This document shows, one piece after another, positions 1 to 30,015 of a stretch of DNA of 32,431 nucleotides. Source of the stretch: Flavobacteriaceae bacterium (GTDB lineage: Bacteria > Bacteroidota > Bacteroidia > Flavobacteriales > Flavobacteriaceae); assembly GCA_016744615.1 (NCBI GenBank), contig JADGEA010000020.1:1-32431 (forward strand), in the 5' to 3' direction. The translations under genes were made by a program, and so were the position numbers. How positions within the stretch are numbered: position 1 is the first letter of the stretch; each line of letters starts with the position of its first letter. The notes under the pieces are model-generated. The model was not told the DNA's origin and did no database searches. It saw only the letters and a list, made by a program, of their open reading frames with translations.

Positions 1-735
1 GGCATTGATCCAGACTCTGGAATTATTATCTTTTAACATTTTAGACAATTCTTTGGTGTAAAATTTTGAATCGATATGAACCACAGGAGGTGCATATCTT
101 GCAATTGCAGAATCTGCCATTTGAAAAGAATAGGCTCTTGGCATGATTTGAGCTGAACTTTCCATTTCTTTTATTTTATCTAATTGATGGTAATCATTGT
201 CAAAATAAAAAACATACTTATTGGTTTGCGTTTTTCGGACCATTTCAACCATTCCTTTTACATTATCTGTTTTCGTATCAATATCAACCATTATTTTCCC
301 CTTGATAATCTTCAACGCCTCCTCAAAAGTCGGAATAGTTTCTTCACTTATTCTACCATAAGGTGCTTTTAAACGAAATGTTCTTAGTTTTGCAAGAGTC
401 AAGTCTTCTACTTTTCCTTTACCGGTTGTAGTACGATCTATCTCTGAATCATGCATTAAAACCAAAAAACCATCTTTTGTTGTTTGCACATCCAGTTCAA
501 CTATATCAACACCTAATGCTATTGCTTTTTTTATAGAAGCAATAGAATTTTCAAAATTACCATTATGCGCCCCTCTGTGTGCCGTGACCAATACTGTTTT
601 TGATGATGCATTATTAAATTCATCTAAAATATTTGATATTCCTGCATTATTAACTGTATTTGTACTTGAACAAGACAAGAAAAATACAGTAATGAATACT
701 GCTACATAATTTAAAATATTTTTATTTTTTTTCAT
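1..735 (-). CDS. Glycerophosphodiester phosphodiesterase family lipoprotein (3' end cut by window edge)
   Basis: The reading frame stays open from the ATG at 735 to base 1, so the C-terminus lies outside the window; 245 codons are visible. The protein starts with a lipoprotein signal (hydrophobic stretch ending FFLSC, lipid-accepting Cys about residue 22), so it should sit on the membrane facing the periplasm or outside. The GDPD signature follows: TAHRGAHNGNFENS (His52/Arg53 and Glu61/Asn62), VELDVQTTKDG (metal-binding Glu and Asp) and LMHDSEIDRTT (catalytic His). This family hydrolyses glycerophosphodiesters to glycerol 3-phosphate and an alcohol. Its start overlaps the end of the GH31 gene by 14 nt in another frame, which suggests translational coupling. 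Substrate unknown. Family call firm. Confidence 0.88.
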   Translation of the reverse strand, partial: MKKNKNILNYVAVFITVFFLSCSSTNTVNNAGISNILDEFNNASSKTVLVTAHRGAHNGNFENSIASIKKAIALGVDIVELDVQTTKDGFLVLMHDSEIDRTTTGKGKVEDLTLAKLRTFRLKAPYGRISEETIPTFEEALKIIKGKIMVDIDTKTDNVKGMVEMVRKTQTNKYVFYFDNDYHQLDKIKEMESSAQIMPRAYSFQMADSAIARYAPPVVHIDSKFYTKELSKMLKDNNSRVWINA

Positions 736-2503
736 AATTAATTTCATAATTTCCTTTATTATAATGTTGTATTTTAATTTTTGTTTTTTGTTTTTCTTGA
801 TCGAATATCCAGTTTTCATCTTCCAATAACACTTTATCATCAAGAGTGATCTTATTTGGTTTAGTTTTAGAATGAATCGCTAAAATATGAGGGATTTGTG
901 TTCCTCGCAGTTTTACTTCCAAATCTTTATTCTCTCTTAATTTATAGGAAATTTCCGTCTTCCCTTTTGTATCTGTATGGTAAAAAATAAAATCATTTTC
1001 CCCTTTTGGATATATCAAAATGGTGGTAAATCCTTTTGAATTTTTATCTCCAATATTTGTATAACTTCTTTCAATATTCATTGGAATAATTGCTCCTTCT
1101 TTTATATAAACAGGAAACTCATCCATAGGATATTCTCTTTCAATAGTTTGGTTGCCAGGAATCAATTCAACATCATCAAAAAAGTATCTCCACTGCCCTT
1201 TTGGCAAAGAGACTTCTCTAATCATTGAATCTATATAGATCGGTGCTACTAAAAAGTCATCTCCAAACATATACTGATGTAATCCCTTTTTCAAAACAGT
1301 TTGCAACCTTCTACCTCCATTATGTGCAGTTACTACATAATGATACATATAAGGCACCAGATCGGTATGCAACCATGAAAATTTTCGGATAACTTCCAAT
1401 TCTTCCTGAGTCCTTTTCCATAATCTTCTTTCTCCATGACCTCCATTCATAAACAATCCACAAAAAGTGGAAAATTGTGTCCAACGCATGTATAATCGTG
1501 GTGGAATGGTTTTGCCAGAAAAACCGGCAACATCCGATCCAATAATATTATATCCAAGTTCAGCACTTTTTAAAACACTTTTAATAGCTGATTCAAACCC
1601 TTCGACACCTTCTAGAGCAATATCAACCTTCTCTTCTTTACTCTCATTCATCATTTCAGCAGTAAGCCATGCATGTTTCTGATCTCCCACCCAGTTAACA
1701 GGTGATGCATCAATAGGTGAAAATCCTTCTGGATGAAAACCTCGGTCAATAGATCTGGATAATGTTACAAAATCAGGATTTTGCTTTAGTCCGTGTTTAT
1801 ATTCTTCACGATAATAAAGGTCCATATATTTTCGGGTAGTCATTATTCCTTCATGAAAATTTTTATAAAAGAAAGGAATCCCTGCTACTTCTGTCCAGAA
1901 TAATGTAGCAGTTCCATCCAGTTTCCAACCATCAATTCCGTAATCAAATACATCCTGCTGTAAACCCCGCCACCATTCCATGGCTTCCGGATTTGTATAA
2001 TCCACAAAACCACCGTCTCCTTTCCACCAATGATTTGGTGTTTTTCCTGCAATTAAGTAGCCATTTTCTTTTGCTTTATGATACCAGTTCTCTGAATTTT
2101 TGATCTTCGTATCCTTACTAAAAATATTGACCATAGAAGTCATCCATAAAACCACCCGATAATCATCATCCTGTAGTTTTTTAAACCATGTTTTTGGGTT
2201 TGGATACAAAAGAGTGTCCACTTTAAAATCATTATATCTAAGTGACCACGGGCTATCTAAAATGATGGTTCTTACAGGTATATCATTTTCTTTATAGCCA
2301 TCCAATAGTTCATCCACATATGCTGCAGTATTCACATCATCTTCCCACAACCAGTTTTCTAATGCCCATGCAGGAGTCAAAGGCGGATTTCCTTGCCTTT
2401 GTGCATTGAATGGCATACCCCAAACCGGATAAATAAAATAAAAATAAGCAATTGCAACTAATAGTATTACACTGATTAATAAGATTTTAATCCATTTTTT
2501 CAT
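722..2503 (-). CDS. Glycoside hydrolase family 31, membrane-anchored
   Basis: This 593-residue protein has one N-terminal membrane segment (residues 5-25) and no lipobox Cys, so it is probably anchored with its catalytic part outside the cytoplasm. The GH31 barrel runs from about residue 45 to 390. The likely nucleophile is Asp196 in YGIDGWKLDGT, the likely acid/base is Asp274 in NWVGDQKHAW, and a typical late motif is IIGSDVAGFSG (321-330). A beta-sandwich tail follows (about 400-593). GH31 enzymes act on alpha-glucosides, alpha-xylosides, alpha-galactosides, sulfoquinovosides or alpha-GalNAc. The residues after the nucleophile (LDGTATLFW) differ from the DMNE or DFGE of glucosidases and sulfoquinovosidases, so I do not assign a substrate. 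Its start overlaps the PHP gene stop by 4 nt (ATGA), and it also overlaps the GDPD gene, so these three form a coupled unit. Confidence 0.9.
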   Translation of the reverse strand: MKKWIKILLISVILLVAIAYFYFIYPVWGMPFNAQRQGNPPLTPAWALENWLWEDDVNTAAYVDELLDGYKENDIPVRTIILDSPWSLRYNDFKVDTLLYPNPKTWFKKLQDDDYRVVLWMTSMVNIFSKDTKIKNSENWYHKAKENGYLIAGKTPNHWWKGDGGFVDYTNPEAMEWWRGLQQDVFDYGIDGWKLDGTATLFWTEVAGIPFFYKNFHEGIMTTRKYMDLYYREEYKHGLKQNPDFVTLSRSIDRGFHPEGFSPIDASPVNWVGDQKHAWLTAEMMNESKEEKVDIALEGVEGFESAIKSVLKSAELGYNIIGSDVAGFSGKTIPPRLYMRWTQFSTFCGLFMNGGHGERRLWKRTQEELEVIRKFSWLHTDLVPYMYHYVVTAHNGGRRLQTVLKKGLHQYMFGDDFLVAPIYIDSMIREVSLPKGQWRYFFDDVELIPGNQTIEREYPMDEFPVYIKEGAIIPMNIERSYTNIGDKNSKGFTTILIYPKGENDFIFYHTDTKGKTEISYKLRENKDLEVKLRGTQIPHILAIHSKTKPNKITLDDKVLLEDENWIFDQEKQKTKIKIQHYNKGNYEINYEKK

Positions 2504-3978
2504 TGCTGATCAATTTCATTGCTTCCTTTCTTAAATCTAAGAAAAGTGGTAATTCCTGAATAGACTATAAAAATGGTTCCAACAGTAAAAAGAATTGTAC
2601 TATACTCCATAAAAATATCATTTTCTGTGCCAACTAATACTTCAGCTTTTAAATAATATATAGCTCCTAACACTAGTATAAATAATGCACTCATAAGACC
2701 AAGCACAGGAATAATTTTATCAAAGGAAAAAAGATTTGATGATTTCTGATGTTCAGATATTTTATTACCAGCAATTAAAAAGAAAAACATCCAAATTACC
2801 CATGAAAGGATCTGAAATATCTGAAGTGTTCGAAAATAATTAATAAGAGTAATTATCGGACTCCAAAATAAATGATCAGGGGTATAATAGGATCTGTCAT
2901 CATACAATAAAATTTTTAATTTACTCTGATCTCTGGATCTGATAATACTTAATATAGCCTCTTCTTTTTCAATAGGATCTAATTTATTCCATTCAGGTAT
3001 CTCCATACCATTCCAAATAGAGCAAACATTTCCATAACCGTGAAAATCCAATCCTCCATTCATAATCAAATTATTCTTTTCACAAAAATCTTTGATCTTA
3101 TGGTATAACTTTCGATTATACTTTTTTTCTAATGCCGTATTTTCAATTTCAAAACCGTCAACTCCCAAATCTCTATAATACTCCAGTGATTTATTCTCAT
3201 CATCAAACCAATGATTTACAATAACAGCTCCTCCATTGGCATGTACTGCTTTAACAACTGTCTCATCAGACATACCTTTTGTCACAAATTTATTCTTTAA
3301 TCCCAATAAACTTAAATGATTGGAAGCTGAATATTCTTCACCCGTCACCACCAACGGTTCAACGGCAAATGCACTCTTTCTTTGTTTTTCAACAAATTCA
3401 AAAGTTTTTTTATGATTGGCATGATCTGTTATAAAAAATGCATCAAAATTATTTTCTTTATGCCATTTCCATAAATTTTCTTGAGAGATTAATCCATCAT
3501 GACTAAATACTGAATGCGAATGTGTGGTTACCAAAATTGTATCCTCAGCATTATTTACAATAGTATTAGCAGGAAAAAATCTGCTTAAAAAAACCAGAAT
3601 TACAAAAATCGCAAATAATAACCCACCTATAACAGGTAAAACAACTACTCTTGCAATAGTAAGTTTCTTTCTTTTCTGTTTATTTTCTATCTTAAGTATT
3701 TTAACAACCGAAAAAATAACAAAAAAGATCAATGCCCAAATTAAGGCAAACTGGATCTCTTCAATAGGGTAGATTGATCGGTTAAAATAGAGTGGAATAC
3801 CAATAAAAGGTTCAAACAAAGTTCTCCAAATAGAGATATGAATATCAAAATCTGGCAAGGCTTCTAATGTAAGGGCATCAATAATTTGAACTGGATAGTG
3901 AAAGAAAGTTGCTAAAATGATTATAAAAGCAACAAGGCTAAGCCATACCACCTTTTTAATACTACTTAATTTATTCAT
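2500..3978 (-). CDS. PHP-domain phosphoesterase embedded in a polytopic membrane protein
   Basis: This 492-residue protein has three predicted membrane segments before a soluble domain (about 10-28, 76-94, 110-134) and three after it (about 386-404, 423-443, 460-480). The central domain (about 147-345) has the PHP metal ligand pattern: THSHS (His153, His155), TDHANH (Asp185, His186), VTGEEYS (Glu214/Glu215), VNHW (His256) and GGLDFHG (Asp311, His313). PHP domains hydrolyse phosphoesters, as in histidinol phosphatase, polymerase PHP domains and TrpH-type exonucleases. With an odd number of helices on each side, the domain could face either side of the membrane. It is first in a tightly coupled set with the GH31 and GDPD genes, with 322 nt of non-coding DNA upstream, so it may start its own transcript. 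The role is inferred: removing phosphate from a glycan fragment. Confidence 0.8.
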   Translation of the reverse strand: MNKLSSIKKVVWLSLVAFIIILATFFHYPVQIIDALTLEALPDFDIHISIWRTLFEPFIGIPLYFNRSIYPIEEIQFALIWALIFFVIFSVVKILKIENKQKRKKLTIARVVVLPVIGGLLFAIFVILVFLSRFFPANTIVNNAEDTILVTTHSHSVFSHDGLISQENLWKWHKENNFDAFFITDHANHKKTFEFVEKQRKSAFAVEPLVVTGEEYSASNHLSLLGLKNKFVTKGMSDETVVKAVHANGGAVIVNHWFDDENKSLEYYRDLGVDGFEIENTALEKKYNRKLYHKIKDFCEKNNLIMNGGLDFHGYGNVCSIWNGMEIPEWNKLDPIEKEEAILSIIRSRDQSKLKILLYDDRSYYTPDHLFWSPIITLINYFRTLQIFQILSWVIWMFFFLIAGNKISEHQKSSNLFSFDKIIPVLGLMSALFILVLGAIYYLKAEVLVGTENDIFMEYSTILFTVGTIFIVYSGITTFLRFKKGSNEIDQQ

Positions 3979-4300: not shown

Positions 4301-6043
4301 TTACTTTTTGATAATATCAGAAAACAATACAGTGTTTGGTATCTCCTCTTTCTTAAAATCATTGCTACTCCATTCCATATTTAAATTACTACCTCCACCC
4401 AATTGATAATAGTAAACTTTCAATTTATGATACCCTTTGCTCATTGACAGATTTACAACTTCTTCCCTATTACTGTGTGCTCCATCATTATTAATAGCAA
4501 GTTTATCATTTAAATAAAACCTACTTCCATCATTAGAGCTCAGGTAAAAAGTATACAAGCCATCTTTTGGGATTTTAATATAACCCGTGAAAATAAAAGC
4601 ATAATTTTCATTAAAATTTTTATGAGAAAGTCCCAAATTAGAAATTTTACCAGAATTGATTTTAGGAAGATCAGCAATCTCAAATGTGTTTCTAACCTTA
4701 CCTCTAAATTCTTTATAATGCAGCCCCATTTGTACCTTTTCACTCACATCTATTGCCTTTTGAAAAATATCTGATCCAACAGTTTGTGATATAATTTTAC
4801 TCGAAGGAAATTTATTTTTTACAGAAATAGCCCTTAATAAAGTGGCTCTAGAAACTTTTATAGATCTGTTCTTATATGTGTTCCCGTTTAATACGGATGG
4901 AATACTTCCATCTAAAGTATATTTGATTTTTACGTCTTTATCCTTACATGATAATTTTATAATTCCTTCTTTATCAAAAGAAATATATGGTTTATCTACT
5001 CTTTCAAAACTATCAAATATATTCTTTAAGTTGGCAATTCTTGCCAGATAAATAGCAGTTTTCTCTTCATGAGAGGAATAGTAAGAAACGTAAAGAATGT
5101 TGTTTTTTATTAAAAATCCTGGATAGCTACAATCACCTCTACTGGGAAGAGTAAGCAACTTTGTAGTTTCTCCTTCAGGAGTTACTTTTACAATTATAGT
5201 ATGTTCTGAAAAATCAGGCAAATATTCCCGGGTTGCACAAAGCATCAAATCATTTTCAAGAATGATAAGATCCGGACCACCCAAACGCGTTTCAAGCTGA
5301 TTCCACTTCCATAATTTATACGGTGGTGCACTTATACCAATCGATCCATTTTTACTATCACCCCTTCTAACAACAGCAACCATTTCATTTTTATCATTAA
5401 ACCTAAGGGTGGTTTCATTACCTCCTGCAACATCAAATGTTGTTATATACTTATAGTTAATTCCATCCGTACTTACCACCAACTGCACAGACTTCACTTT
5501 TGAAGGTTGATACACAGTGCCATAAGATTTTCCTTTATGCCATGTTGCACGCCAAAGCCAATCCATTCCTGTCTTGATTTCAGCATCCAATTCAATATTT
5601 TTAGGTTTTGAAAAATTTCTTCCCTTAGAATCCGAAAAACTCACCTTTGGGTTCATTGCATGAAGTTTACCTCCTACATAAACTGATCCTGCAATATTGA
5701 GCATGATTTTATTATCCGGAGTTATAGATAACTCTGGATCTCTTAAATCAACTCCAAGTTCAGAAATTAAAGCTACCGAATACCAGTTTTGAGAATCATC
5801 AGAAGCGATCACTCTGATAGATCCATTGATATCAGATACATGTCCATTACTTTCCCGAAAGGTGCAATACATTTTACCATTGAATTCTATCAAACTTGTA
5901 AAAGCATTATGTATAGCTCTGTCCCAAATTCTTTCAACCGATAAAATAGCATCATGTTCAGGTGAATTTTGGGAAGCACCATCAAAAGGAAATAATAAAA
6001 TTAATATTACAATGAGAAATATATTCTGAGTTTTAAAAATCAT
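4301..6043 (-). CDS. Sialidase-fold (BNR-type) exported protein with CHB_HEX_C and PA14 modules
   Basis: This 580-residue protein starts with a signal peptide (about 1-24, ending DGASQNS; no lipobox). Residues 35-345 look like a six-bladed sialidase-type propeller: RIWDRAIHNAFTSL, CTFRESNGH (Arg63), DLRDPE (Arg101), VVRRGD and a late RGDCSYPG. The Asp boxes are degenerate (SDDSQNWY, STDGINY). Residues about 360-420 (IKYTLDGSIPS) match the chitobiase/hexosaminidase C-terminal domain, and residues about 433-575 (GLYTFYLSSNDGSRFYLND, INNDGAHS) match PA14, a carbohydrate-binding module. The same two C-terminal modules recur in the lipoprotein at 27003-28814. The family acts on sialosides or related sugars; exact specificity is unknown. 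It is the last gene of the AraC-divergent unit before a 322-nt gap. Confidence 0.75.
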   Translation of the reverse strand: MIFKTQNIFLIVILILLFPFDGASQNSPEHDAILSVERIWDRAIHNAFTSLIEFNGKMYCTFRESNGHVSDINGSIRVIASDDSQNWYSVALISELGVDLRDPELSITPDNKIMLNIAGSVYVGGKLHAMNPKVSFSDSKGRNFSKPKNIELDAEIKTGMDWLWRATWHKGKSYGTVYQPSKVKSVQLVVSTDGINYKYITTFDVAGGNETTLRFNDKNEMVAVVRRGDSKNGSIGISAPPYKLWKWNQLETRLGGPDLIILENDLMLCATREYLPDFSEHTIIVKVTPEGETTKLLTLPSRGDCSYPGFLIKNNILYVSYYSSHEEKTAIYLARIANLKNIFDSFERVDKPYISFDKEGIIKLSCKDKDVKIKYTLDGSIPSVLNGNTYKNRSIKVSRATLLRAISVKNKFPSSKIISQTVGSDIFQKAIDVSEKVQMGLHYKEFRGKVRNTFEIADLPKINSGKISNLGLSHKNFNENYAFIFTGYIKIPKDGLYTFYLSSNDGSRFYLNDKLAINNDGAHSNREEVVNLSMSKGYHKLKVYYYQLGGGSNLNMEWSSNDFKKEEIPNTVLFSDIIKK

Positions 6044-6088: not shown

Positions 6089-7066
6089 TCATTCCATAGA
6101 AAACTCCATAAATCTTTCCGTAATTTGTGGTTTTACATGTTTTTTTAAATGTTCTGGGTAACCTAAATCCCATGGAGAAGGACCTACATATTCAGATTTT
6201 TTACCTGACATTTTAATATAACCTTCGGTTGATATTTCCACAACTGTATAAAGAGGATTCTTATAAGGCGCCGTATATTTGATCCACTTAAAATCTTTGT
6301 CAACCTCAGCACTATATCTAATATTCTCATACTCCTCACCAAGCCATTTATACGACATGGAATTTATAGTTATATACCAGATTCCGTTTAAGTCTTCAGC
6401 AAAATCATGGTGCGTATGCCCATTAAAACAACAAATAATATAACTGGTTTTATTCTCTCTGTTATGATCTTCAAATATTTTTCTTACTTCTTTAGAATTC
6501 TCAATGGAATATCTTTCGTTTGGATTATCAGGGTCAGTACCAATTCCCTGATGAGAAAAAATGACAATTGGATCTTTACTTATTTTCAATTCTTCTTTTA
6601 ACCAACCTAATTGTTTTTCACCAATATAAGATCTATAGTCTTTTTGGCTTATCTCTTTCTTATCGTTTCCATCCAACACAATAAACTTAAATCCATTTTT
6701 TATAAAAGAATAGTATGAATTTTTCATTTTTCTATAAGATACAGCCTTTTCTAATGAGGTTCCTCCATCCATTTCATGGTTACCAATTACATGATATTTT
6801 GGTCCCTCAAATGAATTCCATATTTCAAAGTATGGTGTATACTCCTTTTTTGGAATACAAAAATCTCCCAGTTCAATAATAAAATCTGGTTTTGCAATTT
6901 GCATACTATCCATAAAGGAAGTAATTCTTTTTTCTGCATCATGCATGGTTGGTAAGTGAACATCAGAACACATTCCAATTTTAATAGTTTTTATTTCTTT
7001 TTTAGAAGAACAACTAAAAAGTATTAAAACTGAAACTGATAAGAGTAAATATTTATACACTCTCAT
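6089..7066 (-). CDS. Calcineurin-like metallophosphoesterase lipoprotein
   Basis: This 325-residue protein has a lipoprotein signal (LILFSC, Cys19) followed directly by the phosphoesterase fold. All five metal motifs are visible: SDVHLP (Asp36, His38), ELGDF (Asp69), IGNHE (Asn97, His98), IFSHQG (His173) and NGHTHHD (His218, His220). It should therefore be an active dimetal hydrolase of phosphomonoesters or phosphodiesters outside the cytoplasm. It starts 2 nt after the stop of the aldose epimerase gene, so the two are co-transcribed and probably coupled. The CDS ends 45 nt before the sialidase-like gene begins. The substrate is not evident from sequence; context points to a carbohydrate-linked phosphate. 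Confidence 0.88.
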   Translation of the reverse strand: MRVYKYLLLSVSVLILFSCSSKKEIKTIKIGMCSDVHLPTMHDAEKRITSFMDSMQIAKPDFIIELGDFCIPKKEYTPYFEIWNSFEGPKYHVIGNHEMDGGTSLEKAVSYRKMKNSYYSFIKNGFKFIVLDGNDKKEISQKDYRSYIGEKQLGWLKEELKISKDPIVIFSHQGIGTDPDNPNERYSIENSKEVRKIFEDHNRENKTSYIICCFNGHTHHDFAEDLNGIWYITINSMSYKWLGEEYENIRYSAEVDKDFKWIKYTAPYKNPLYTVVEISTEGYIKMSGKKSEYVGPSPWDLGYPEHLKKHVKPQITERFMEFSME

Positions 7067-22521: not shown

Positions 22522-23601
22522 CTAAAAATCTGATTTATAAGTAAATTTATCCCAGGTTTTACCATTGGTATCAATCATCTCAAAAGTCACTTTACCTCCA
22601 TCCACTTTAACAGAAACTACATAAAACATAGGTTTATTAAGAAATGTCTCTTCTTTATTAGATGCATAAAATTTGAATTCTTCTGAATCCATACCCTTAA
22701 TTCTTCCATAATAAGCATCACCAGTTATAGCATCACTTTCCCGTTTTAAATCGTAAATGGTTGCACCTGCACCGGCAGAAACTATATAATTAACTCCATC
22801 TCTTAGAGTTCTATAATAAATATGATCATGACCTGAGAAAACTGCATCTACTTTATATTTTGAAAACAATTCAGTTACAACTGTACTTTTGCCTTCTACA
22901 TCTTTATAACTTTTATGCCCTACTGTATAATAGGGTCTGTGCTTAAAAACAAAAATGTGCATGCCTTGTGCTTCAATAAGTTCTTTCTCAAGCCATTCTA
23001 AGCGCTCAGGACTATTAGAAACTTTAATCCAGTCTAATGCTATAAATTTGGCATTTCCGTAAGTAAAACTATATAGAGGATCTTTTAAACCAAAAAAGTC
23101 GCCGAAATTTTTCACACCAGAATCGTAATTCTTCTGTCTTGTATTCTTCTTTGGCCCACCCACTTCATGATTACCTAAAGTTGGCCAGGTTGGATATTTT
23201 CTAAAAAACCATCCGGCATCCTTATCCAGATCATTATACAATTTTTCTCCAATATCTCCTCCTCCTTTATTTACCAGATCTGCTGTTGTTAAACAAAATT
23301 GTGGATTTAACTGATCTGCTATTTTCAATACACTTTTTAAATGCTTGCTCCCCTTTGAATCACCAAAGACTAAAAAATGCATTGGTTTTTTCAATTTTAC
23401 TTCTCCATTCGACCTTGTTTTCTCATATTTATCCCTAAGTTTTTGCATTCCCGGTTCAGGATTATAAGGAGCTTTATTAGTTATAATACTAATTTGATTT
23501 GAAACTACTACATCATTCTTACTACTAGTAGTTTTTGTTGATTTACATGAATTGAATACTATTAAAAGTATAAAAATCATAATTATTCTAACTCTCATCA
23601 T
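22522..23601 (-). CDS. Calcineurin-like metallophosphoesterase lipoprotein (purple acid phosphatase-like)
   Basis: This 359-residue protein has a lipobox (VFNSC, Cys19) and a polar linker to about residue 72. Metal-ligand motifs are LVFGDSKG (Asp81), TTADLV (Asp108), LGNHE (Asn144, His145), FKHRPYY (His221) and SGHDHIYYR (His258, His260), the last typical of purple acid phosphatase-like enzymes. All ligands are present, so an active exported phosphatase or phosphodiesterase is expected. The next gene downstream encodes a degenerate relative, and another phosphoesterase lies upstream beyond a pseudogene remnant. Three such genes in a row suggest gene duplication and divergence on related phosphate esters. 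Confidence 0.86.
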   Translation of the reverse strand: MMRVRIIMIFILLIVFNSCKSTKTTSSKNDVVVSNQISIITNKAPYNPEPGMQKLRDKYEKTRSNGEVKLKKPMHFLVFGDSKGSKHLKSVLKIADQLNPQFCLTTADLVNKGGGDIGEKLYNDLDKDAGWFFRKYPTWPTLGNHEVGGPKKNTRQKNYDSGVKNFGDFFGLKDPLYSFTYGNAKFIALDWIKVSNSPERLEWLEKELIEAQGMHIFVFKHRPYYTVGHKSYKDVEGKSTVVTELFSKYKVDAVFSGHDHIYYRTLRDGVNYIVSAGAGATIYDLKRESDAITGDAYYGRIKGMDSEEFKFYASNKEETFLNKPMFYVVSVKVDGGKVTFEMIDTNGKTWDKFTYKSDF

Positions 23602-23877: not shown

Positions 23878-25005
23878 TTATTTGGTCTTTCTTCTTTTTA
23901 CAACAACGGTATCAAATTCAGTTCCGTTGATATCTATTACGTGCAAAACAGCATTATCTTCATTAATTTCTACATTTACAAAATGTTCTATTTTCTTGTA
24001 CTTAACAGTTTCAGGCTGAATTGCATCAAATTTGTAAAGTGGCGCTCCTCCGCCTGCTGAAGTTATGAAATGTACATTGTCCTTCACAGCACGATGGTAA
24101 TGATGATCATGGCCATTTAAAAAAACTTGCACTCCGTTACGAGAAAATATATCTCCCCAGAATTTACGTGCTATTTCTGCTTCTTCCACCCTATTTTTCA
24201 TAATGCTATACAATGGTTTATGTTGAAATACAAATACATAACCCGCTTCCCTATTTAGGTCGAGTACCTTTTGTAACCATTTTTTCTGCTCCACAAAATA
24301 ATCATCAAAAGCTTCATACCAGAACTCATCACTATTCTCTTCCGAAACAAAACTTGGCTCACTTATTTGAATCCCTTCACTATCCAACACAATGAAAAGT
24401 GCATCCCCTAAAGTAAAATAATAATACCGTTCATTATTTGGCAAATCAAACATATCATAATAATACGGTGAGTCTTTCTCATGATTTCCCAATACAGGAT
24501 AATAAGGTGTATTTCTCATCAGTTCTTTACTCACTCCAAAAAATGCCTCCCAATCTTCAATTGCTCTTCCATTACGAACCAAATCACCTGAATTCACAAT
24601 AAATCTAGGTTTTTTTGCCATAATTTTACCCAATATTTCACTGTGAACATCGTGTCTGTTTCTTGTGTCTCCAATAGCAACAAAATTAAAAGGAATCTTT
24701 TCATCTGGATAGGTTGTAAATTTTCCTTTTCCTTCATCAGAACCATCATTCAAAACATCATAGGAATATTCTGAATTAGGTTTTAAATCCCCTAGATGAA
24801 TTTTATGGTGTTTATATTCTCTTACAAATTGTGTTTTTCCATCTTTATCGGTTATGGTGGGTTCACTTTCAAGAGTTGACCAGCAAATAGTTGCATCTTT
24901 TGTACTCATTTGTTGGATGTAAGGTCCAAAAGCAATTTTATCCGTTTTTTGTGTATACCCGATAAATATGCTAAAAAGTATAAGAATTGTTACGAAATTT
25001 TTCAT
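23878..25005 (-). CDS. Exported purple acid phosphatase-like metallophosphoesterase
   Basis: This 375-residue protein has a signal peptide (about 1-19, FIGYTQK), then a small beta-sandwich (about 22-100) like the fibronectin-type front domain of purple acid phosphatases (FGPYIQQMSTKDATICW, LKPNSEYSYDV). The catalytic part has AIGDTRNRH (Asp113), NSGDLV (Asp140), LGNHEKD (Asn174, His175), FQHKPLY (His262) and NGHDHHYHR (His299, His301). Complete ligand set, so an active phosphatase or phosphodiesterase is likely. First gene of the long minus-strand unit, with a good promoter match 35-66 nt upstream of its start, divergent from the FGGY kinase gene. Confidence 0.88.
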   Translation of the reverse strand: MKNFVTILILFSIFIGYTQKTDKIAFGPYIQQMSTKDATICWSTLESEPTITDKDGKTQFVREYKHHKIHLGDLKPNSEYSYDVLNDGSDEGKGKFTTYPDEKIPFNFVAIGDTRNRHDVHSEILGKIMAKKPRFIVNSGDLVRNGRAIEDWEAFFGVSKELMRNTPYYPVLGNHEKDSPYYYDMFDLPNNERYYYFTLGDALFIVLDSEGIQISEPSFVSEENSDEFWYEAFDDYFVEQKKWLQKVLDLNREAGYVFVFQHKPLYSIMKNRVEEAEIARKFWGDIFSRNGVQVFLNGHDHHYHRAVKDNVHFITSAGGGAPLYKFDAIQPETVKYKKIEHFVNVEINEDNAVLHVIDINGTEFDTVVVKRRKTK

Positions 25006-25039: not shown

Positions 25040-25071
25040 CAAAAATACCTAATAATTAATTCATTCATCAA
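25040..25071 (-). promoter_or_regulatory. Bacteroidota-type promoter for the phosphatase-led minus-strand unit
   Basis: On the minus strand, TTG (25071-25069) is followed after 21 nt by TATTTTTG (25047-25040), an exact TAnnTTTG match, 35 nt before the start codon at 25005. It shares the 160-nt spacer with the divergent kinase promoter. Confidence 0.5.
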
Positions 25072-25105
25072 GTTAATTTTATTCTAAACATATCATATAT
25101 TAACC

Positions 25106-25134
25106 TTTGATTTATTTTATTAAATATAATTTTG
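25106..25134 (+). promoter_or_regulatory. Bacteroidota-type promoter for the FGGY kinase
   Basis: TTTG (25106-25109), a 17-nt spacer and TAATTTTG (25127-25134) fit the -33/-7 consensus TTTG and TAnnTTTG. Transcription would begin near 25140, leaving a leader of about 25 nt. Confidence 0.6.
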
Positions 25135-25165
25135 TCATTATAATCAGATTTTAGTTTTTTAAATT

Positions 25166-26833
25166 ATGCAAAATAAAATAGTATTAGGTATTGATTTTGG
25201 TTCTACAGCAGTAAGAGTACTTACTTTGGAGTTAGAAAGCGGAAAAGTTCTCCATTCAGTTGAACATGCTTATGAAAAAGGCGTAAACGGTGTATTTACT
25301 TCTGATTCAGATAGTTTATTAGCTCGCCAAAGTGCTACTGACTATATAAACTCCATGAAAATGGCTTTAAAGAAATCTGAACTTGAGAATAAAAAGGCTG
25401 GTATTGCAATGTCTTCCGTTACCGGAATTGGGGTCGATGCAACAGGTTCAACTCCATTGCCAGTCACCAAAAACATGAAGCCTCTTTCTTCACTCGATCA
25501 ATTCAAGGATAATTTAAACGCCTATTCATGGATGTGGAAAGATCATACTTCCCATAAAGAAGCAGATAAAATTACGAAAACAATTACAAAAATCAGACCT
25601 CTATATTTAACCAAAATAGGAGGTGCTTATTCCTCGGAATGGTTTTGGGCTAAAATTTTACACTGCAGAAATATAGATAAAGAAGTTTTTGATACTGCAT
25701 TTACTTGGCTGGAATTAAGTGATTTTATTCCTGCGGTTCTTGCAGGAATAACAGATGCCAATGAAGTAAAAAGAAATATTTGTGCAGCCGGACACAAAGG
25801 ATTATACAATGATGAATGGGGAGGTTTTCCAGATGCTAAATTTATAGAGGCCTTACATCCCGATTTAATAAAAATATTAAAAACCTTACCTAAAAAAACA
25901 TATTCCATTGAGTATAATAGTGGAAAATTATCAAAAGAATGGGCTGAAGAATTTGGTATGCCAGAGGGTATTCCAATTGCTATGGGTATTCTTGATGCAC
26001 ATGCTGGCGCTGTTGGATCGGGAATAAAAGATGGAAGTTTGGTTAAGATTATTGGTACTTCAACCTGTGATCTAGTTTTAGGTGATTTAGACAAAAGCAA
26101 TTCTAATATTGAAGGAGTAGCCAGTGTTGCTACCGAATCGGTATTACCCAATTATTTTGGAATTGAAAGCGGACAAAGTGCAGTTGGTGATATTCTGGAT
26201 TGGTACATCAAAAATATTTTAAAGAACAATCGTTCTCATAAAGATCTTACAGAAGAAGCGGAAAGCATTAAAGTTGGTGCAAGTGGACTTATTGCACTGG
26301 ACTGGAATAACGGGAATAGGAGTATCTTATCAGACCCAATGTTGTCCGGACTTATTATTGGTCAGAGTTTACAAACCAAAGATTTTGAAATTTACAGAGC
26401 TTTGATCGAAAGTACTGCTTTTGGTGCAAGAGTAATTATTGAGGATATGGAACGCCAGGGAGTTGTAATCAATGATATTGTTAATTGTGGAGGAATTACG
26501 CATAAAAATCCACTGTTTATGCAGATCTATGCAGATGTGATCAATAAACCCATGAAAATTGCTGCTATCGATGAAACAGTAGCGCTAGGCTCTGCATTAA
26601 TGGGTGCCTATGCTGCTTATTCAAAGGAAGGTAAAACGATCACCTACAATGAATTGCAGGACAAAAGTTGTACGGTAACCGAAAAAGTGTATCATCCAAT
26701 TTCTGAAAACGTAAAGGTCTATCATAAACTATACAATATCTATAAAAAATTACATGATGCCTTTGGAATTGAAGGGAGTAAAATTGAATTATATCCTGTG
26801 ATGAAAGATCTCATAAAGATCAAAAACGGATAA
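25166..26833 (+). CDS. FGGY-family carbohydrate kinase, ribulokinase-like
   Basis: This 555-residue cytoplasmic protein has the N-terminal phosphate loop LGIDFGSTAVRVL (Asp10). The ribulokinase-type WKDHTSHKEA (124-133), GAYSSEWFWAKILH and catalytic base Asp277 in GILDAHAGAVGSG follow, then the late NCGGITHKNPLFMQIYADVI. Length and motifs match ribulokinases (AraB), which phosphorylate L-ribulose and some other ketopentoses. No L-arabinose isomerase or ribulose-phosphate epimerase gene is seen in the window, so it may serve another ketose or polyol made in this pathway. Own promoter and terminator, opposite strand to almost all neighbours. Confidence 0.9.
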   Translation: MQNKIVLGIDFGSTAVRVLTLELESGKVLHSVEHAYEKGVNGVFTSDSDSLLARQSATDYINSMKMALKKSELENKKAGIAMSSVTGIGVDATGSTPLPVTKNMKPLSSLDQFKDNLNAYSWMWKDHTSHKEADKITKTITKIRPLYLTKIGGAYSSEWFWAKILHCRNIDKEVFDTAFTWLELSDFIPAVLAGITDANEVKRNICAAGHKGLYNDEWGGFPDAKFIEALHPDLIKILKTLPKKTYSIEYNSGKLSKEWAEEFGMPEGIPIAMGILDAHAGAVGSGIKDGSLVKIIGTSTCDLVLGDLDKSNSNIEGVASVATESVLPNYFGIESGQSAVGDILDWYIKNILKNNRSHKDLTEEAESIKVGASGLIALDWNNGNRSILSDPMLSGLIIGQSLQTKDFEIYRALIESTAFGARVIIEDMERQGVVINDIVNCGGITHKNPLFMQIYADVINKPMKIAAIDETVALGSALMGAYAAYSKEGKTITYNELQDKSCTVTEKVYHPISENVKVYHKLYNIYKKLHDAFGIEGSKIELYPVMKDLIKIKNG

Positions 26834-26872
26834 TTACAACTGTTATTTTAAATCTTTTATTGTTAAGAAACA

Positions 26873-26902
26873 CTGATGGTTGTGCTTTTGCACAACCATC
26901 AG
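26873..26902 (+). terminator. Strong hairpin terminator after the FGGY kinase
   Basis: CTGATGGTTGTGC (26873-26885) pairs perfectly with GCACAACCATCAG (26890-26902) around a TTTT loop. This 13-bp stem lies 39 nt after the kinase stop. The plus strand has no T run after it (AAATTCAA). On the minus strand the hairpin is followed by TGTTTCTT, so it may also stop transcripts arriving from the sialidase-like gene at 27003, about 100 nt away. Confidence 0.72.
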
Positions 26903-27002
26903 AAATTCAATAATTTACAACAAAATTATATAGCCCAGATTGAATTATATAATGTTTGAATCTATTTGTTTCATCAATAAATCTTATGTTTTATAGGCTA
27001 TT

Positions 27003-28814
27003 TTACTTTTCCACCAATTCTTCTTTATGATAAAGTACTGATTCTGGTATCTCTTCTTTTTTAAAATCAGATCCATCCCATAAAACTTTTAAGGATTTTC
27101 CTCCTTCCTTTTGAAAATATTTAACTTTTAATCTGTGTAGCCCCTTTCTCAAAGATGTAGAAACACTTTTTGTATAAATGCCATGAGCTCCATCATTGTC
27201 AATTAATTTATGATCATTTAAAAACAGTACACTTCCATCATTGGATTCTAGATAAAAAGTATATAATCCATCTTCATTAATTTTTATGTACCCATCAAAA
27301 ACATAAGCAAAATTTTGAAGTATTTTACTCTCTTCTATTGAGAATTGAGAGATAACACCTGATTTTATGACTATTGAAGAATCAATTTCACTCGTTTGAT
27401 CAAAACTATCTTCAAAATAATTGAAATATAATCCTTGTTTTAAGTTAAATGTAACTTCTTGTGCCGATTGAAAAATATGACTACCTACCTGTTTATATAC
27501 GATTTTACTAGGAGTTTTATCCATATGAAATGCCTGCATATATAAAGGGGTTAAGCTATCTATAACTATTGGATCTCGATAGATTAAACCAGTATCCTCT
27601 GAAGGAAGACTTCCATCTAATGTATATCGAATTTGAGTATTTTTATCCGAGCATGTCAAAACAAGAGTTTCATTATCAAATTTAACTGTGGGCTCTGAGG
27701 TTGCTTCTTTATAGACCCAATCTAAACTTAAACGGGTGATCTGAGTAGTAGACAACCCATTGTTTGTTTTTGTATCTCCTGCACAATGTCCCAGTAAAAT
27801 ATGATTATCAGTAAAATCAATAGCGGTATAACAATACCATCCTGCAGGATCACTTTCTACTGTTTTAATTTTCTCCCAGGTTTTACCCTCATTTTTTGAA
27901 ATAGCCAAACTAAAAGGAGTACGTTTTCCACCATCTCTCCCTTTTTCATAATTATTATTCCATAGCAATAACAGATCCCCGGTAGAAGGAATTCTTTCTA
28001 TAGATGCTGGTGATAAAGGGGATCTGATATTTCCCGGTTCAATTTCAGACCATGTTTCTCCGTGATCATCAGAAAAAGAAAAATATTGAACACCAGATTC
28101 TGTTCTGCAAAACAACATCAGGTTACCATTCTTTAACTCAACAATTCCAGGCTCTTGTAATGTAATATTCTCAGGGTTAGCTACTTGTTCTGATTTTCTC
28201 CATGTACCCCCATTGTCATCAGAATAATAGGAAAAAATCTTGCCTTTTGACCATACAGGAGCTGTATGTAAAGATGTTGAAAAAATAATTCTTCCGTTTA
28301 CCAGCTGTAAAAATCTATCATTATTTACTACATGATAACCCTGGTTGGGAATACATCTTTTTGGTTCACTCCATGTTTTTGCTTCATCTGTTGATATTCG
28401 CATAAAGGGAATACAATCTGTTTCTGAATTTTTTCTTAAATAAAATAAAGCTATATCATCGTTCTCTAATCGCAATAAGGAAACCGACATAATATTCATT
28501 CCTCCTTCATTGGAGAGAATTTTGACATCTTTGCTAGTCCAGGTTTTTCCATGGTCATATGAAAATCTACCTGCTAAATGTGCAGTTGCATTATCTCCTG
28601 TTCCACTTGTAAAATGCGTATACATAAATAAAATGCTTCCATCTTTTAATTGAATAAAATCACCTTCACTGTTTCTGGGGTTTCCATTACTAGGCTCCAG
28701 CCTCAAAACAATTTCCTTACCGGAATCTTTTTGACTTCTCTTGTTTGCACACCCCAAAGTAATTCCCACAAGAAAAAAACTAACAACAAAGCACTTAATG
28801 ATATAGATCTTCAT
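27003..28814 (-). CDS. Sialidase-like (BNR) lipoprotein with CHB_HEX_C and PA14 modules
   Basis: I chose the ATG at 28814 (603 residues), because it begins a proper lipoprotein signal (KIYIIKCFVVSFFLVGITLGC, Cys22); an open frame extends upstream to 28898, but it would bury this signal. Five clear Asp boxes mark the propeller: SYDHGKTW, STDEAKTW, SDDNGGTW, SDDHGETW and SKNEGKTW. EPGIVELKNGNLMLFCRT and GDFIQLKDGSI are typical of sialidase-family blades. Residues about 378-440 (IRYTLDGSLPS) are a CHB_HEX_C domain and about 458-590 (GLYTFYLESNDGSVLFLND, DNDGAHG) a PA14 module. Probably a surface exo-sialidase or relative. It is a single-gene unit with the strong hairpin downstream. Confidence 0.82.
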   Translation of the reverse strand: MKIYIIKCFVVSFFLVGITLGCANKRSQKDSGKEIVLRLEPSNGNPRNSEGDFIQLKDGSILFMYTHFTSGTGDNATAHLAGRFSYDHGKTWTSKDVKILSNEGGMNIMSVSLLRLENDDIALFYLRKNSETDCIPFMRISTDEAKTWSEPKRCIPNQGYHVVNNDRFLQLVNGRIIFSTSLHTAPVWSKGKIFSYYSDDNGGTWRKSEQVANPENITLQEPGIVELKNGNLMLFCRTESGVQYFSFSDDHGETWSEIEPGNIRSPLSPASIERIPSTGDLLLLWNNNYEKGRDGGKRTPFSLAISKNEGKTWEKIKTVESDPAGWYCYTAIDFTDNHILLGHCAGDTKTNNGLSTTQITRLSLDWVYKEATSEPTVKFDNETLVLTCSDKNTQIRYTLDGSLPSEDTGLIYRDPIVIDSLTPLYMQAFHMDKTPSKIVYKQVGSHIFQSAQEVTFNLKQGLYFNYFEDSFDQTSEIDSSIVIKSGVISQFSIEESKILQNFAYVFDGYIKINEDGLYTFYLESNDGSVLFLNDHKLIDNDGAHGIYTKSVSTSLRKGLHRLKVKYFQKEGGKSLKVLWDGSDFKKEEIPESVLYHKEELVEK

Positions 28815-29190
28815 ATTTTTTATATTTAACTTCTGTTTTACACAAATTATTCTTCCACATTTCCTATTTGACAATCCTTTCTTCTTTAAAAGATACATGC
28901 TTGATTGCTTTTTTATTTTCCTTTAAAAAATAAGAATAGGTTATATAAATTTTATCGTTTTTTGATTGAATTAGAAAAAAATAGAAGCATAGCCTCAATT
29001 ACAATTGTGTTTTTAAACGAAATGCAAGCAAAAAAGAAACGATTTATATACGACATTATGTTGTTAAATTAGTATTACTCATACTTACTCGATGTTGTAA
29101 AATATTATTCATGATTTTCTATAATTGAAAAAAACCATTGATAATCTATTTATTATTAAATAAGTAAATATTAACCATTGTTAAATTCAG
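28815..29190. other. Non-coding interval upstream of the sialidase-like lipoprotein gene
   Basis: This interval of about 376 nt is AT-rich and separates two same-strand genes. It must hold the lipoprotein gene's promoter, but I found no exact TAnnTTTG box. I found no RNA gene, repeat or credible ORF other than the in-frame upstream extension that I rejected as coding. Confidence 0.5.
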
Positions 29191-30015
29191 CTACTGGTTT
29201 AATCGCTTAATACCCATTTCTTCTGCAACTTCAAGCATTTGTTCAAGCTTATTCGTTAAAACAAAATCAACACCATTATCAAATAACTCCTTAACCTCTC
29301 TTTCGGTATCACCAAAATAATAGTTCACCTTGATCTTATTTTGTTTGAGTATTCTTATATTTTCTTGCAATCTATCGTCATTTCTCTTTTTCAACAATTG
29401 AATAAAAGGATATTTCTCCTGAATAGTTTTTTGAACATATTCATTTCTATCTGACTGACGCTCCATATTACAAATCAGAATTTTCTGACTAACATTTTTT
29501 ACACCAGTAGCTGCAACTTCACCACAAGCTATAACTCCCTGATGCATTCTATCTTCAGCAACAAGAACTATGGCAGTCGCTTCCCCCAGCTCCTTGTTTC
29601 CCTTTAAATGAATATTGAGCCAGATGTTTTTTGGAAATACGGCAAGTGCTTCCTTTAAAGTAGGAACTTTTTCATCTTTAAACTCTTTTGATTTCCAGCT
29701 ACCTGCATCTAGTTCTTTAATTTCTGCCAAGGTCAATTCACTAATTAAGCCCTTGCTATTTGTTGTTCTATCAACTGACTTATCATGTATAATTACCAAT
29801 TTTTTATCTTTGGTAATTCGCACATCAAATTCCACCATCTGAGCTCCTAAGCGAACTGCCTCTTTAAATGCAGCCAAGGTATTCTCAGGATGTGTTTCAC
29901 TTGCTCCTCTATGTGCACAAATGCCTCTATCAGGTAACTTTACCTCTCCTTGTGAAAACAGCAAGGGAGATTGCAAAAGTGATAATAATGTTAATATACC
30001 AATGATTTTCCTCAT
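29191..30015 (-). CDS. Exported glycerophosphodiester phosphodiesterase family protein
   Basis: This 274-residue protein has a signal peptide (about 1-22, LLFSQGEV). GDPD landmarks are ICAHRGASETHPENTLAAF (His35, Arg36, Glu44, Asn45), VEFDVRITKD (Glu62, Asp64) and IIHDKSVDRTT (catalytic His77). The C-terminal part keeps the closing strand FVLTNKLEQ. It should release glycerol 3-phosphate or a related product from a phosphodiester outside the cytoplasm. It lies 14 nt downstream of the propeller/toroid gene, so the two are made together. It is the second GDPD in the window, the first being the truncated one at the left edge. Unlike that one it has no lipid anchor. Confidence 0.9.
   Translation of the reverse strand: MRKIIGILTLLSLLQSPLLFSQGEVKLPDRGICAHRGASETHPENTLAAFKEAVRLGAQMVEFDVRITKDKKLVIIHDKSVDRTTNSKGLISELTLAEIKELDAGSWKSKEFKDEKVPTLKEALAVFPKNIWLNIHLKGNKELGEATAIVLVAEDRMHQGVIACGEVAATGVKNVSQKILICNMERQSDRNEYVQKTIQEKYPFIQLLKKRNDDRLQENIRILKQNKIKVNYYFGDTEREVKELFDNGVDFVLTNKLEQMLEVAEEMGIKRLNQ

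What the first reader, a model, noticed from the sequence alone, without database searches (positions are those of the whole stretch)
1..30015. Seven exported or membrane phosphoester hydrolase-like genes interleaved with glycosidases
Two GDPD proteins (1-735, 29191-30015), four calcineurin-fold proteins (6089-7066, 21566-22498, 22522-23601, 23878-25005) and one membrane PHP protein (2500-3978) lie among sialidase-like, GH31 and GH67N-like genes. The motifs are seen in the sequence; the families' chemistry is established. I infer a substrate with phosphomonoester and glycerophosphodiester groups on a sugar backbone, such as a teichoic-acid-like or glycerophosphoglycan polymer. Usual glycan loci carry sulfatases here; none is present.
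Basis: partly seen in the sequence, partly recalled or inferred. Interest (0 to 1): 0.7.

Follow-up and report, generated by a model that had tools for sequence, protein, structure and literature searches.

The report
Glycan-degradation gene island with built-in phosphoesterases
A flavobacterium and its relatives carry a large sugar-breakdown gene island in which enzymes that cut phosphate bonds sit inside the same operons as sugar-processing enzymes, which suggests a food glycan that carries phosphate, though which glycan is not known.

Summary
Two GDPD proteins with the canonical motif are present, one cut off by the window's end. Three calcineurin-fold proteins exceed the Pfam cut-off; a fourth (21566-22498) is divergent with altered metal-ligand motifs; the membrane PHP protein barely passes its cut-off. 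Clustering is beyond chance: 3 of 17 Metallophos and 2 of 5 GDPD genes of the genome lie in 0.7% of it. The lack of sulfatases is uninformative (0.17 expected). The window is part of a larger accessory island of Flavobacteriaceae. In 10 relatives, stretches picked by the GH67N-like and PHP genes hold Metallophos genes 7.6 times more densely than the rest of those genomes. 23 of 33 phosphoesterase ORFs there lie within 100 bp, same strand, of another island gene. GDPDb's ortholog occurs in 8 of 11 GH67N-positive and 0 of 45 GH67N-negative genomes. Two of the seven proteins (6089-7066, 21566-22498) lack such linkage. I favour a glycan-utilisation island whose phosphoesterases unblock phosphate-decorated oligosaccharides in the periplasm. 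Teichoic acid in particular has no support; phosphate scavenging remains a serious rival.

The parts
1..735 (-). GDPDa: lipoprotein-type GDPD, C-terminus cut off by the window's end; overlaps GH31 by 14 bp
   Evidence: PF03009 109.8 bits; lipobox-like FLSC ending at residue 22; orthologs 60-66% beside PROP735-like genes in G184, G172, G011, G129 and also present in G225
722..2503 (-). GH31 glycosidase, N-terminal membrane anchor
   Evidence: PF01055/PF21365; 65-70% orthologs beside the PHP protein in G225, G184, G212, G129, G135
2500..3978 (-). PHPm: multi-pass membrane protein with PHP domain
   Evidence: PF02811 29.6 bits; strong matches in 8 of 299 family genomes (own included), 7 of them GH67N-positive
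4301..6043 (-). SIA1: exported protein of unknown family with C-terminal Fn3_assoc/CHB_HEX_C_1 and PA14
   Evidence: two 68-69% orthologs lack the C-terminal cassette
6089..7066 (-). MPP1: lipoprotein-type calcineurin-fold phosphoesterase, 2 bp from the aldose-epimerase gene, 45 bp from SIA1
   Evidence: PF00149 47.6 bits; gaps; no specific co-occurrence
7069..7956 (-). aldose 1-epimerase-like
   Evidence: PF01263
8000..8992 (-). Gfo/Idh/MocA dehydrogenase
   Evidence: PF01408/PF22725; conserved next to SSS
9121..10608 (-). sodium:solute symporter (SSS)
   Evidence: PF00474; TIGR00813 over cut-off; orthologs 74-88%
10618..11538 (-). DAPA1: DapA/NanA-superfamily aldolase or dehydratase
   Evidence: PF00701 190 bits; below every NCBIfam cut-off listed
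11670..12521 (+). AraC-type regulator
   Evidence: PF12833; 69-73% orthologs in the same place
12546..13175 (-). TM209 membrane protein
   Evidence: no family; conserved beside TM424 in G225 and G212 and G129
13245..14519 (-). TM424 membrane protein of unknown function
   Evidence: no family over cut-off; 59-71% orthologs
14572..15687 (-). NagX-like membrane protein (acetyltransferase-like)
   Evidence: NF046061 320 bits, below cut-off 480
15708..17411 (-). exported protein, unknown
   Evidence: no Pfam or NCBIfam hit
17599..18246 (-). HAD phosphatase or beta-phosphoglucomutase-like, no export signal
   Evidence: PF13419, TIGR02009 129.7 bits, below its cut-off 153.35
18266..19189 (-). DAPA2: second, divergent DapA-superfamily enzyme
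   Evidence: PF00701 85 bits; often next to GH67N-like genes
19218..21548 (-). GH67N-like lipoprotein: TIM-barrel glycosidase-like protein of unassigned family
   Evidence: AF2 pLDDT 92; Foldseek GH115/GH84/GH20/GH67
21566..22498 (-). MPP2: divergent calcineurin-fold protein, 17 bp from the GH67N-like gene
   Evidence: hhalign E 3e-4, probability 40%; only in the own genome of 299, plus L088 at 78%
22522..23601 (-). MPP3: lipoprotein-type calcineurin-fold phosphoesterase
   Evidence: PF00149 55.8 bits; orthologs 61-69% in G129, G225, G212, none in 45 GH67N-negative genomes
23878..25005 (-). MPP4: exported phosphoesterase, distant kin of purple acid phosphatases
   Evidence: PF00149 57.5 bits; PDB purple acid phosphatases E 4e-5; orthologs 64-73% in G212 (row flagged with one TAA), G129, G225
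25166..26833 (+). FGGY kinase, ribulokinase-like
   Evidence: NF003154 568.7 bits, over cut-off 428; TIGR01234 488.3, below its cut-off 583.25
27003..28898 (-). SIA2: GH33-like BNR protein with CHB_HEX_C_1 and PA14
   Evidence: PF13088 105.7 bits; PDB sialidase B E 1.8e-12
29191..30015 (-). GDPDb: exported GDPD, 14 bp from PROP735
   Evidence: PF03009 146.1 bits; orthologs 53-57% in 7 of the 10 other GH67N-positive genomes and 0 of 45 GH67N-negative
30030..32237 (-). PROP735: N-terminal beta-propeller plus helical C-terminal part, function unknown
   Evidence: AF2 pLDDT 87; Foldseek matches propellers, among them those of BT4663/BT4673

Best explanation
The window is one block of a large accessory glycan-utilisation island of Flavobacteriaceae. 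Exported or membrane-anchored glycosidase-like proteins (GH67N-like, GH31, sialidase-like) cut an imported oligosaccharide. Exported lipoprotein-type and soluble phosphoesterases (two GDPDs and the calcineurin-fold enzymes) remove phosphodiester-linked groups and phosphomonoesters that would otherwise block glycosidases or sugar uptake. The freed sugars enter through the SSS symporter and are split by two DapA-superfamily enzymes with help from the Gfo/Idh, HAD, epimerase and FGGY-kinase genes. Phosphate release is a by-product. Shown: the genes, their operon-like packing, and their conservation with phosphoesterases in relatives. Inferred: periplasmic location, order of steps, and that the substrate carries phosphate. 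Unknown: which glycan.
For: Packing in the window: MPP3-MPP2-GH67N-DAPA2-HAD (gaps 23, 17, 28, 19 bp), GALM-MPP1-SIA1 (2, 45), PHPm-GH31-GDPDa (overlaps 4, 14), PROP735-GDPDb (14). In relatives: GH2-DegT-GDPDb-GFO2-HAD in a tight run in G018 and G184, GH2-DegT-GDPDb-GFO2 in G172 and G011, GH2-BNR-DegT-GDPDb-GFO2 in G212, looser in G225; PROP735-GDPDa in G184, G172, G011 (104 bp apart in G129); GH67N paralog-Metallophos in G225, G212, G129, G189, G018; MPP4-(PAP768)-DAPA2-HAD in G225 and G129; SSS-GFO-PAP482 in G018 and G184. 23 of 33 phosphoesterase ORFs in relatives lie <=100 bp from a same-strand labelled island gene. Metallophos density in stretches chosen by GH67N/PHPm: 14 against 2.0 expected, 19.0 against 2.49 per Mb. 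GDPDb ortholog in 8 of 11 GH67N+ and 0 of 45 GH67N- genomes (Fisher 1.2e-7). SusC/D-like pairs in the stretches of all 10 relatives (three such proteins pairs' members of G184 confirmed by Pfam). AraC-type regulator conserved in the island. Own contig C16, carrying GH2 and SSS orthologs of the island, also has an organophosphate-antiporter-like MFS gene (TIGR00881 199 bits, below cut-off 407.75).
Against: No activity or substrate is shown. MPP1 and MPP2 are not conserved with the island. G289 has the GH67N-like gene but no Metallophos or GDPD hit in the 40 kb fetched. Of 80 public GH67N-like loci only 9 hold a Metallophos and 4 a GDPD gene. 10 of the 33 phosphoesterase ORFs in relatives lack a close island neighbour. 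The window has no SusC/D pair, so import is argued from relatives. The relatives are related to one another, so the Fisher values overstate independence. Assignment of C16 and C349 to the same organism rests on a bin with 8.35% contamination.
Confidence: 0.5

Rival explanations
1. Phosphate scavenging: the phosphoesterases feed the cell with phosphate (as in the phosphate-utilisation, PUS, loci of Flavobacterium johnsoniae) and are merely carried by a sugar island.
For: Flavobacterium PUS loci pair SusCD-type transporters with phosphomono- and diesterases and are induced by phosphate depletion (PMC8115612, section 16 and passages read). Two phosphoesterases of the window lack a specific link to the island.
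Against: The conserved phosphoesterases mostly sit inside aldolase, dehydrogenase and glycosidase gene runs, with a conserved AraC regulator. The paper sets PUSI and PUSII apart from traditional PULs with CAZymes (though two other PUS lipoproteins resemble a polygalacturonase); this island holds several glycosidases. No SusC/D-type pair lies in the window. I ran no search for Pho boxes or PhoX/PafA genes near the island.
Confidence: 0.2
2. The substrate is a glycophospholipid or glycosyl-inositol-phosphate head group (GIPC- or GPI-like): GDPDs cut the lipid-phosphate bond, ceramidase-like and esterase genes remove lipid parts, Gfo/Idh enzymes oxidise inositol or sugar.
For: Ceramidase-like genes (PF04734; L123:18131-19537 50.6 bits and own L194:3527-4771 36.8, cut-off 32.1), YdjC and esterases run with the island in relatives and on own contig C349. 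GFO matches inositol 2-dehydrogenase at 121 bits, below cut-off 355.
Against: Two of the four PF04734 matches scored here are below cut-off (31.3 and 18.7 bits); no enzyme is specific for inositol or sphingoid bases. The window itself has no ceramidase-like gene. The link of GDPDs to GIPC cleavage is recalled only; the one search for it found no paper.
Confidence: 0.13
3. The folds mislead: calcineurin-, PHP- and GDPD-fold proteins of this island do other chemistry (for example ester, lactone or glycoside-related hydrolysis), and no phosphate is involved.
For: MPP2 has altered metal-ligand motifs. PHPm is weak to PHP and to the CehA/McbA hydrolase family (38.7 of 80 bits). The calcineurin-fold and PHP proteins reach no curated NCBIfam cut-off (the GDPDs were not run there).
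Against: GDPDa and GDPDb keep the canonical motif; MPP1, MPP3 and MPP4 keep GNHE and GHxH. Two unrelated phosphoesterase folds recur in the same gene runs.
Confidence: 0.12

Closest known systems
Polysaccharide utilisation loci (PULs) of Bacteroidota
   Same: exported glycosidases, sugar importer, AraC regulator, sugar catabolic enzymes; SusC/D-like pairs in the stretches of all 10 relatives
   Different: SusC/D not in this window; phosphoesterases take the place that sulfatases have in many marine loci (the last part recalled); the main glycosidase-like protein is of no named family in Pfam or NCBIfam
Phosphate utilisation systems (PUS, PusCD) of Flavobacterium johnsoniae (PMC8115612)
   Same: exported phosphomono- and diesterases in PUL-type clusters of a flavobacterium
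   Different: PUS loci are low-phosphate-induced and PUSI/PUSII are set apart from CAZyme-bearing PULs; here phosphoesterases are spliced into glycosidase, aldolase and dehydrogenase gene runs
NtdA/NtdB/NtdC 3-amino-sugar enzyme set of Bacillus (PMC8788734, passages)
   Same: in G018 and G184 a DegT aminotransferase, a Gfo/Idh dehydrogenase and a HAD protein stand together with GDPDb; the matching of families to NtdA/C/B is recalled
   Different: the set is biosynthetic in Bacillus; here with GH2 and GDPDb; substrate unknown; no DegT gene in this window
Sialic-acid (Nan) catabolic clusters
   Same: sialidase-like gene, DapA/NanA-superfamily enzymes, SSS symporter; AGE epimerase in a relative
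   Different: DAPA1 and DAPA2 far below the NanA cut-off (84.5 and 34.8 of 382 bits)

Membership tests
Polysaccharide utilisation locus (PUL) | SusC/SusD-type pair in the locus | tested here: not met
   No SusC- or SusD-type protein among the window's 24 genes; such pairs lie in the fetched stretches of all 10 relatives by BLASTP to G184's, whose TonB-receptor/SusD families Pfam confirms
Polysaccharide utilisation locus (PUL) | co-located exported glycosidases, importer and regulator | tested here: met
   GH31, BNR, GH67N-like, SSS and AraC genes
Phosphate utilisation system (PUS) | PusC/PusD transporter beside phosphoesterases | tested here: not met
   no such pair in the window
Phosphate utilisation system (PUS) | induction by phosphate depletion | not testable with these tools
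   needs transcript data
GDPD family (GDPDa, GDPDb) | PF03009 over cut-off and HRG/E.D/HD motif | tested here: met
   (motif recalled)
Metallophos (MPP1, MPP3, MPP4) | PF00149 over cut-off | tested here: met
Metallophos (MPP2, 21566-22498) | PF00149 over cut-off and canonical ligands | tested here: not met
   no Pfam hit; distant hhalign match E 3e-4, probability 40%, ligand motifs changed
PHP family (PHPm) | PF02811 over cut-off | tested here: met
   29.6 against 26.4 bits; phosphoester activity not testable
GH67 alpha-glucuronidase (19218-21548) | GH67 Pfam domains | tested here: not met
   no Pfam hit up to E 0.001; fold similarity only, GH67 ranked behind GH115, GH84 and GH20, TM about 0.4-0.5
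N-acetylneuraminate lyase (DAPA1, DAPA2) | NanA equivalog cut-off | tested here: not met
   TIGR00683 84.5 and 34.8 bits against 382
GH33 sialidase (SIA2) | BNR/sialidase domain over cut-off | tested here: met
   PF13088 105.7 bits, PDB sialidases; activity unknown
GH33 sialidase (SIA1) | BNR/sialidase domain over cut-off | tested here: not met
   only PA14 and Fn3_assoc/CHB_HEX_C_1 matched; in hhalign against SIA2 the strong part is the shared C-terminal cassette

The most novel reading that the evidence does not exclude
A dedicated phosphoglycan-utilisation system: Flavobacteriaceae degrade a phosphate-decorated, perhaps amino-sugar- or keto-acid-containing glycoconjugate with operons in which GDPDs and calcineurin-fold enzymes act as obligate de-capping enzymes, as sulfatases do in sulfated-algal-glycan loci, and with an unassigned glycosidase family (the GH67N-like protein) at its core, thereby coupling carbon and phosphorus cycling.
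Probability: 0.28. Interest if true: 0.75.

Novelty: new variant of a known kind. Interest (0 to 1): 0.5.

Why it matters
Marine glycan loci are usually read through their sulfatases (recalled). A conserved island that uses phosphoesterases in that position would point to a pool of phosphorylated glycans that is seldom considered, and would join carbon and phosphorus recycling in one gene set. The core gene also occurs in named isolates, so the idea can be tested without the unnamed bin.

Tried and rejected
Rejected readings. (1) Sulfatase absence as a signal: 25 sulfatase matches elsewhere in the genome give 0.17 expected in the window. (2) Sialic-acid catabolism: DapA enzymes far below the NanA cut-offs. 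(3) GH67 alpha-glucuronidase: no domain hit, fold only. (4) GIPC/GPI degradation: kept as a rival only; one search found no paper joining the terms. (5) Kdo/ulosonic-acid catabolism (GH33-like + DapA-type aldolase + ribulokinase-like kinase): a lead from memory; the paper search listed nothing on it, and I made no further test. (6) Promoter scans: sigma-70-like hits 73 against 84.6 in shuffles, window 14400-32431 only; Bacteroidetes-type -7 box 18 against 23.7: no information. (7) The PROP735 model's PDB matches are to propellers in general; they do not name an activity.

Limits. The 80 public loci are the best 80 of 99, +-10 kb at most, and many contigs are short. ORFs in relatives were called mechanically, >=90-100 aa. 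Families there were assigned by home-made HMMs built from proteins of the window's genome and by BLASTP to labelled ORFs; Pfam was run on 35 proteins of relatives and other own contigs (all 30 of relatives, 5 of G184) and on 9 of own contigs. MPP2 entered the iterated HMM through its L088 ortholog, so its score there is circular and is not used. Stretches were chosen partly after GDPD and MPP hits, so the density statistic uses only the stretches, without G135; the count of 14 was made by hand's places, and recounted. Two genomes with weak GH67N matches (G003, G226) were not fetched. When I fetched the GH67N-paralog stretches I had seen that some had a Metallophos neighbour; all six genomes' paralog hits were fetched, with or without one. 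Contigs C16 and C349 were found through MPP and GH2 hits, so the binomial value for three contigs is biased and is not used. In some searches, 56 of the 299 handles were given, among them all 11 strong GH67N-positive genomes.

Literature: ten searches of the held library. Phosphoesterase or phosphorylated-glycan terms together with PUL terms gave zero papers; two searches listed papers, of which I opened one (PMC8115612). PMC8812569 was seen only in a listing.

Full report
What is there. The window is G000:C60:1-32431 of a 4.64 Mb bin in 565 contigs, 97.8% complete and 8.35% contaminated. Named holders of its GH67N-like gene at 70-74% include Arenibacter, Maribacter, Kriegella and Zobellia; unnamed Flavobacteriaceae bins reach 76-89%. 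That these genera are marine is recalled. I count 24 genes, 22 of them on the minus strand (my selection from 28 mechanical ORFs). Pfam and NCBIfam confirm two GDPD and three Metallophos proteins over cut-off and one PHP protein barely over. The fourth 'calcineurin' protein, 21566-22498, has no direct hit; it aligns to a profile of 16 Metallophos proteins of the same genome with hhalign E 3e-4 (probability only 40%) and has altered ligand motifs. I therefore count two solid GDPDs, three solid calcineurin-fold proteins, one divergent one, and one PHP protein of uncertain chemistry.

Chance. The genome has 17 Metallophos (15, plus 6089-7066, plus a fragment on C349), 5 GDPD and 25 sulfatase matches. 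Three Metallophos and two GDPD in 0.7% of the genome have binomial P of 2.2e-4 and 4.8e-4; zero sulfatases has P 0.84. So the clustering is real and the missing sulfatases say nothing for this window alone.

Operon-like packing. Gaps: MPP3-MPP2 23 bp, MPP2-GH67N 17, GH67N-DAPA2 28, DAPA2-HAD 19; GALM-MPP1 2, MPP1-SIA1 45; PHPm-GH31 and GH31-GDPDa overlap by 4 and 14; PROP735-GDPDb 14. Six of the seven proteins are thus packed with sugar-related or other island genes; MPP4 stands 276 bp upstream of MPP3. Lipobox-like sites are seen in GDPDa, MPP1, MPP3, GH67N and SIA2, and hydrophobic anchors in GH31 and PHPm (a crude scan); export is inferred.

The island in relatives. Among 299 family genomes the GH67N-like protein is found strongly (E = 0, 65% identity or more) in own plus 10; two more have only weak matches. 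PHPm is found strongly in 8, own included, 7 of them GH67N-positive. Stretches around these genes in the 10 genomes (and G135) were fetched. They show the window's genes as a mosaic of a larger island: GH67N-DAPA2, DAPA1-PHPm-GH31-TM424-TM209-AraC-DAPA1-SSS-GFO and others recur, orthologs at about 46-88% identity. In G018, G184, G011 and G172 the pieces lie on one contig over about 50-80 kb; in G212, G129 and G225 they lie at two or three places. The stretches of relatives add SusC/D-like pairs (in all 10), and in G184, G225 or G018 GH2, GH92, an AGE-type epimerase, SIS, ROK, PfkB-HAD, HpcH/HpaI aldolase, DegT aminotransferase, ceramidase-like, YdjC, PhoPQ-related and esterase genes. The two genomes of the same genus in the draw (G025, G253) lack the GH67N-like gene, PHPm, MPP3, MPP4 and GDPDb: the island is accessory.

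Phosphoesterases belong to it. In stretches chosen by GH67N and PHPm hits, 14 Metallophos genes were found where 2.0 were expected from the genomes' own totals (137 in 50.1 Mb): 19.0 against 2.49 per Mb. Of 33 Metallophos or GDPD ORFs in all fetched stretches of relatives, 23 have a same-strand neighbour among the labelled island genes within 100 bp; 10 do not. Recurrent runs are listed: GH2-DegT-GDPDb-GFO2(-HAD), PROP735-GDPDa, GH67N paralog-Metallophos, MPP4-(PAP768)-DAPA2-HAD, SSS-GFO-PAP482. In a set of 56 genomes (11 GH67N-positive, 45 negative), GDPDb orthologs (>=53% over >=244 residues) occur in own plus 7 of 10 positives and in 0 of 45 negatives; MPP3 (>=61%) and MPP4 (>=64%) in own plus the same three positives, 0 of 45. 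More distant homologs occur in both groups for GDPDb and MPP4, and one weak one in G135 for MPP3. Relatedness among the positives makes the Fisher values too small.

Results against. MPP1's best homolog is 46% and homologs occur in GH67N-negative genomes as well. MPP2 was found in the own genome only, of 299, and in one public contig, L088, at 78% with much the same gene order. Of 80 public GH67N-like loci (1.42 Mb; best 80 of 99), 9 contain a Metallophos gene (10 genes) and 4 a GDPD gene, none a sulfatase: about 7 Metallophos per Mb, a modest excess over 2.49. G289 has no hit of either kind in the 40 kb fetched. Two sulfatase-like ORFs lie in G018's and one in G225's later stretches, plus one weak match in G080, so the island's borders may touch sulfatase genes.

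Other parts of the same genome. Contig C16 carries an MPP4 paralog (51%, at the contig edge), a second Metallophos, two GH92-like, GH78-type, GH3 and DUF4838/GH67N proteins, the island's second symporter (84%) and GH2 (69%), and an MFS protein whose best model is the organophosphate-antiporter-type subfamily TIGR00881 (199 bits; cut-off 407.75). Contig C349 carries orthologs of the PhoPQ-related, esterase, YdjC and ceramidase-like genes (59-68%) and a purple-acid-phosphatase-like protein (47%). No SusC/D-like gene was labelled on C16 or C349. These contigs fit one island broken by assembly, but the bin's contamination leaves doubt.

The core glycosidase-like protein. The AlphaFold2 model of the GH67N-like protein (44 sequences, pLDDT 92) resembles GH115, GH84, GH20 and GH67 by Foldseek (E 8e-19 to 1.5e-9 in the 50 rows shown, TM about 0.34-0.51 by query length, 8-13% identity, large rmsd for GH115). 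It has no Pfam or NCBIfam family. Whether CAZy has placed it I could not test. PROP735 (pLDDT 87) is a beta-propeller like, among others, those of glycan-sensing hybrid regulators, with a helical C-terminal part.

How it most likely works. Oligosaccharides enter the periplasm (SusC/D in relatives). Exported glycosidases trim them; GDPDs and calcineurin-fold enzymes remove phosphate-linked groups. Sugars are taken in by SSS and split by DapA-type enzymes; Gfo/Idh, HAD, epimerase and kinase finish the work; AraC regulates. All steps beyond gene identity and conservation are inferred. In G018 and G184 DegT, Gfo/Idh and HAD stand together with GDPDb, recalling the NtdA/C/B set for 3-amino sugars (PMC8788734, passages); this suggests, no more, an amino sugar. 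The closest prior art for phosphoesterases in such clusters is the PUS loci of F. johnsoniae (PMC8115612, section 16 and passages), which are phosphate-starvation systems that the authors set apart from CAZyme-bearing PULs.

Verdict. Partly confirmed and strengthened: a glycan island with phosphoesterases as conserved operon members in one flavobacterial lineage. The teichoic-acid idea is one of several and has no specific support. A new variant of a known kind; interest 0.5.

Noticed in passing
window 4301-6043 and 27003-28898; L192:15908-19378: A C-terminal Fn3_assoc/CHB_HEX_C_1 plus PA14 cassette is shared by two window proteins and a GH78-type protein on own contig C16; the two SIA1 orthologs compared (339 and 342 aa) lack it, which suggests domain shuffling within this genome.
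   Followed up: partly
window 19218-21548; L026-L103: The GH67N-like family reaches from Bacteroidota to records titled Acidobacteria, Planctomycetales, Hydrogenedentota and Omnitrophota, with 43-76% identity to the window's protein in the 43 rows aligned, and no Pfam or NCBIfam family for the window's member: a candidate new glycosidase family.
   Followed up: partly
L122:11147-12798 and L125:136-3031: Near GH67N-like genes in relatives stand a SIS protein (GmhA-like by recall), a ROK kinase and a PfkB-HAD fusion, an unexplained sugar-phosphate set.
   Followed up: no
window 13245-14519: TM424, a membrane protein with no family over cut-off, is strongly conserved in the island (59-71%).
   Followed up: no
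window 26873-26902: A 13-pair hairpin with a T-containing tail lies between the convergent kinase and SIA2 genes, perhaps a terminator.
   Followed up: no
G000:C16 (L192:5398-6675): An organophosphate-antiporter-like MFS gene lies between a Metallophos gene and GH92-like genes on another contig of the same bin.
   Followed up: partly
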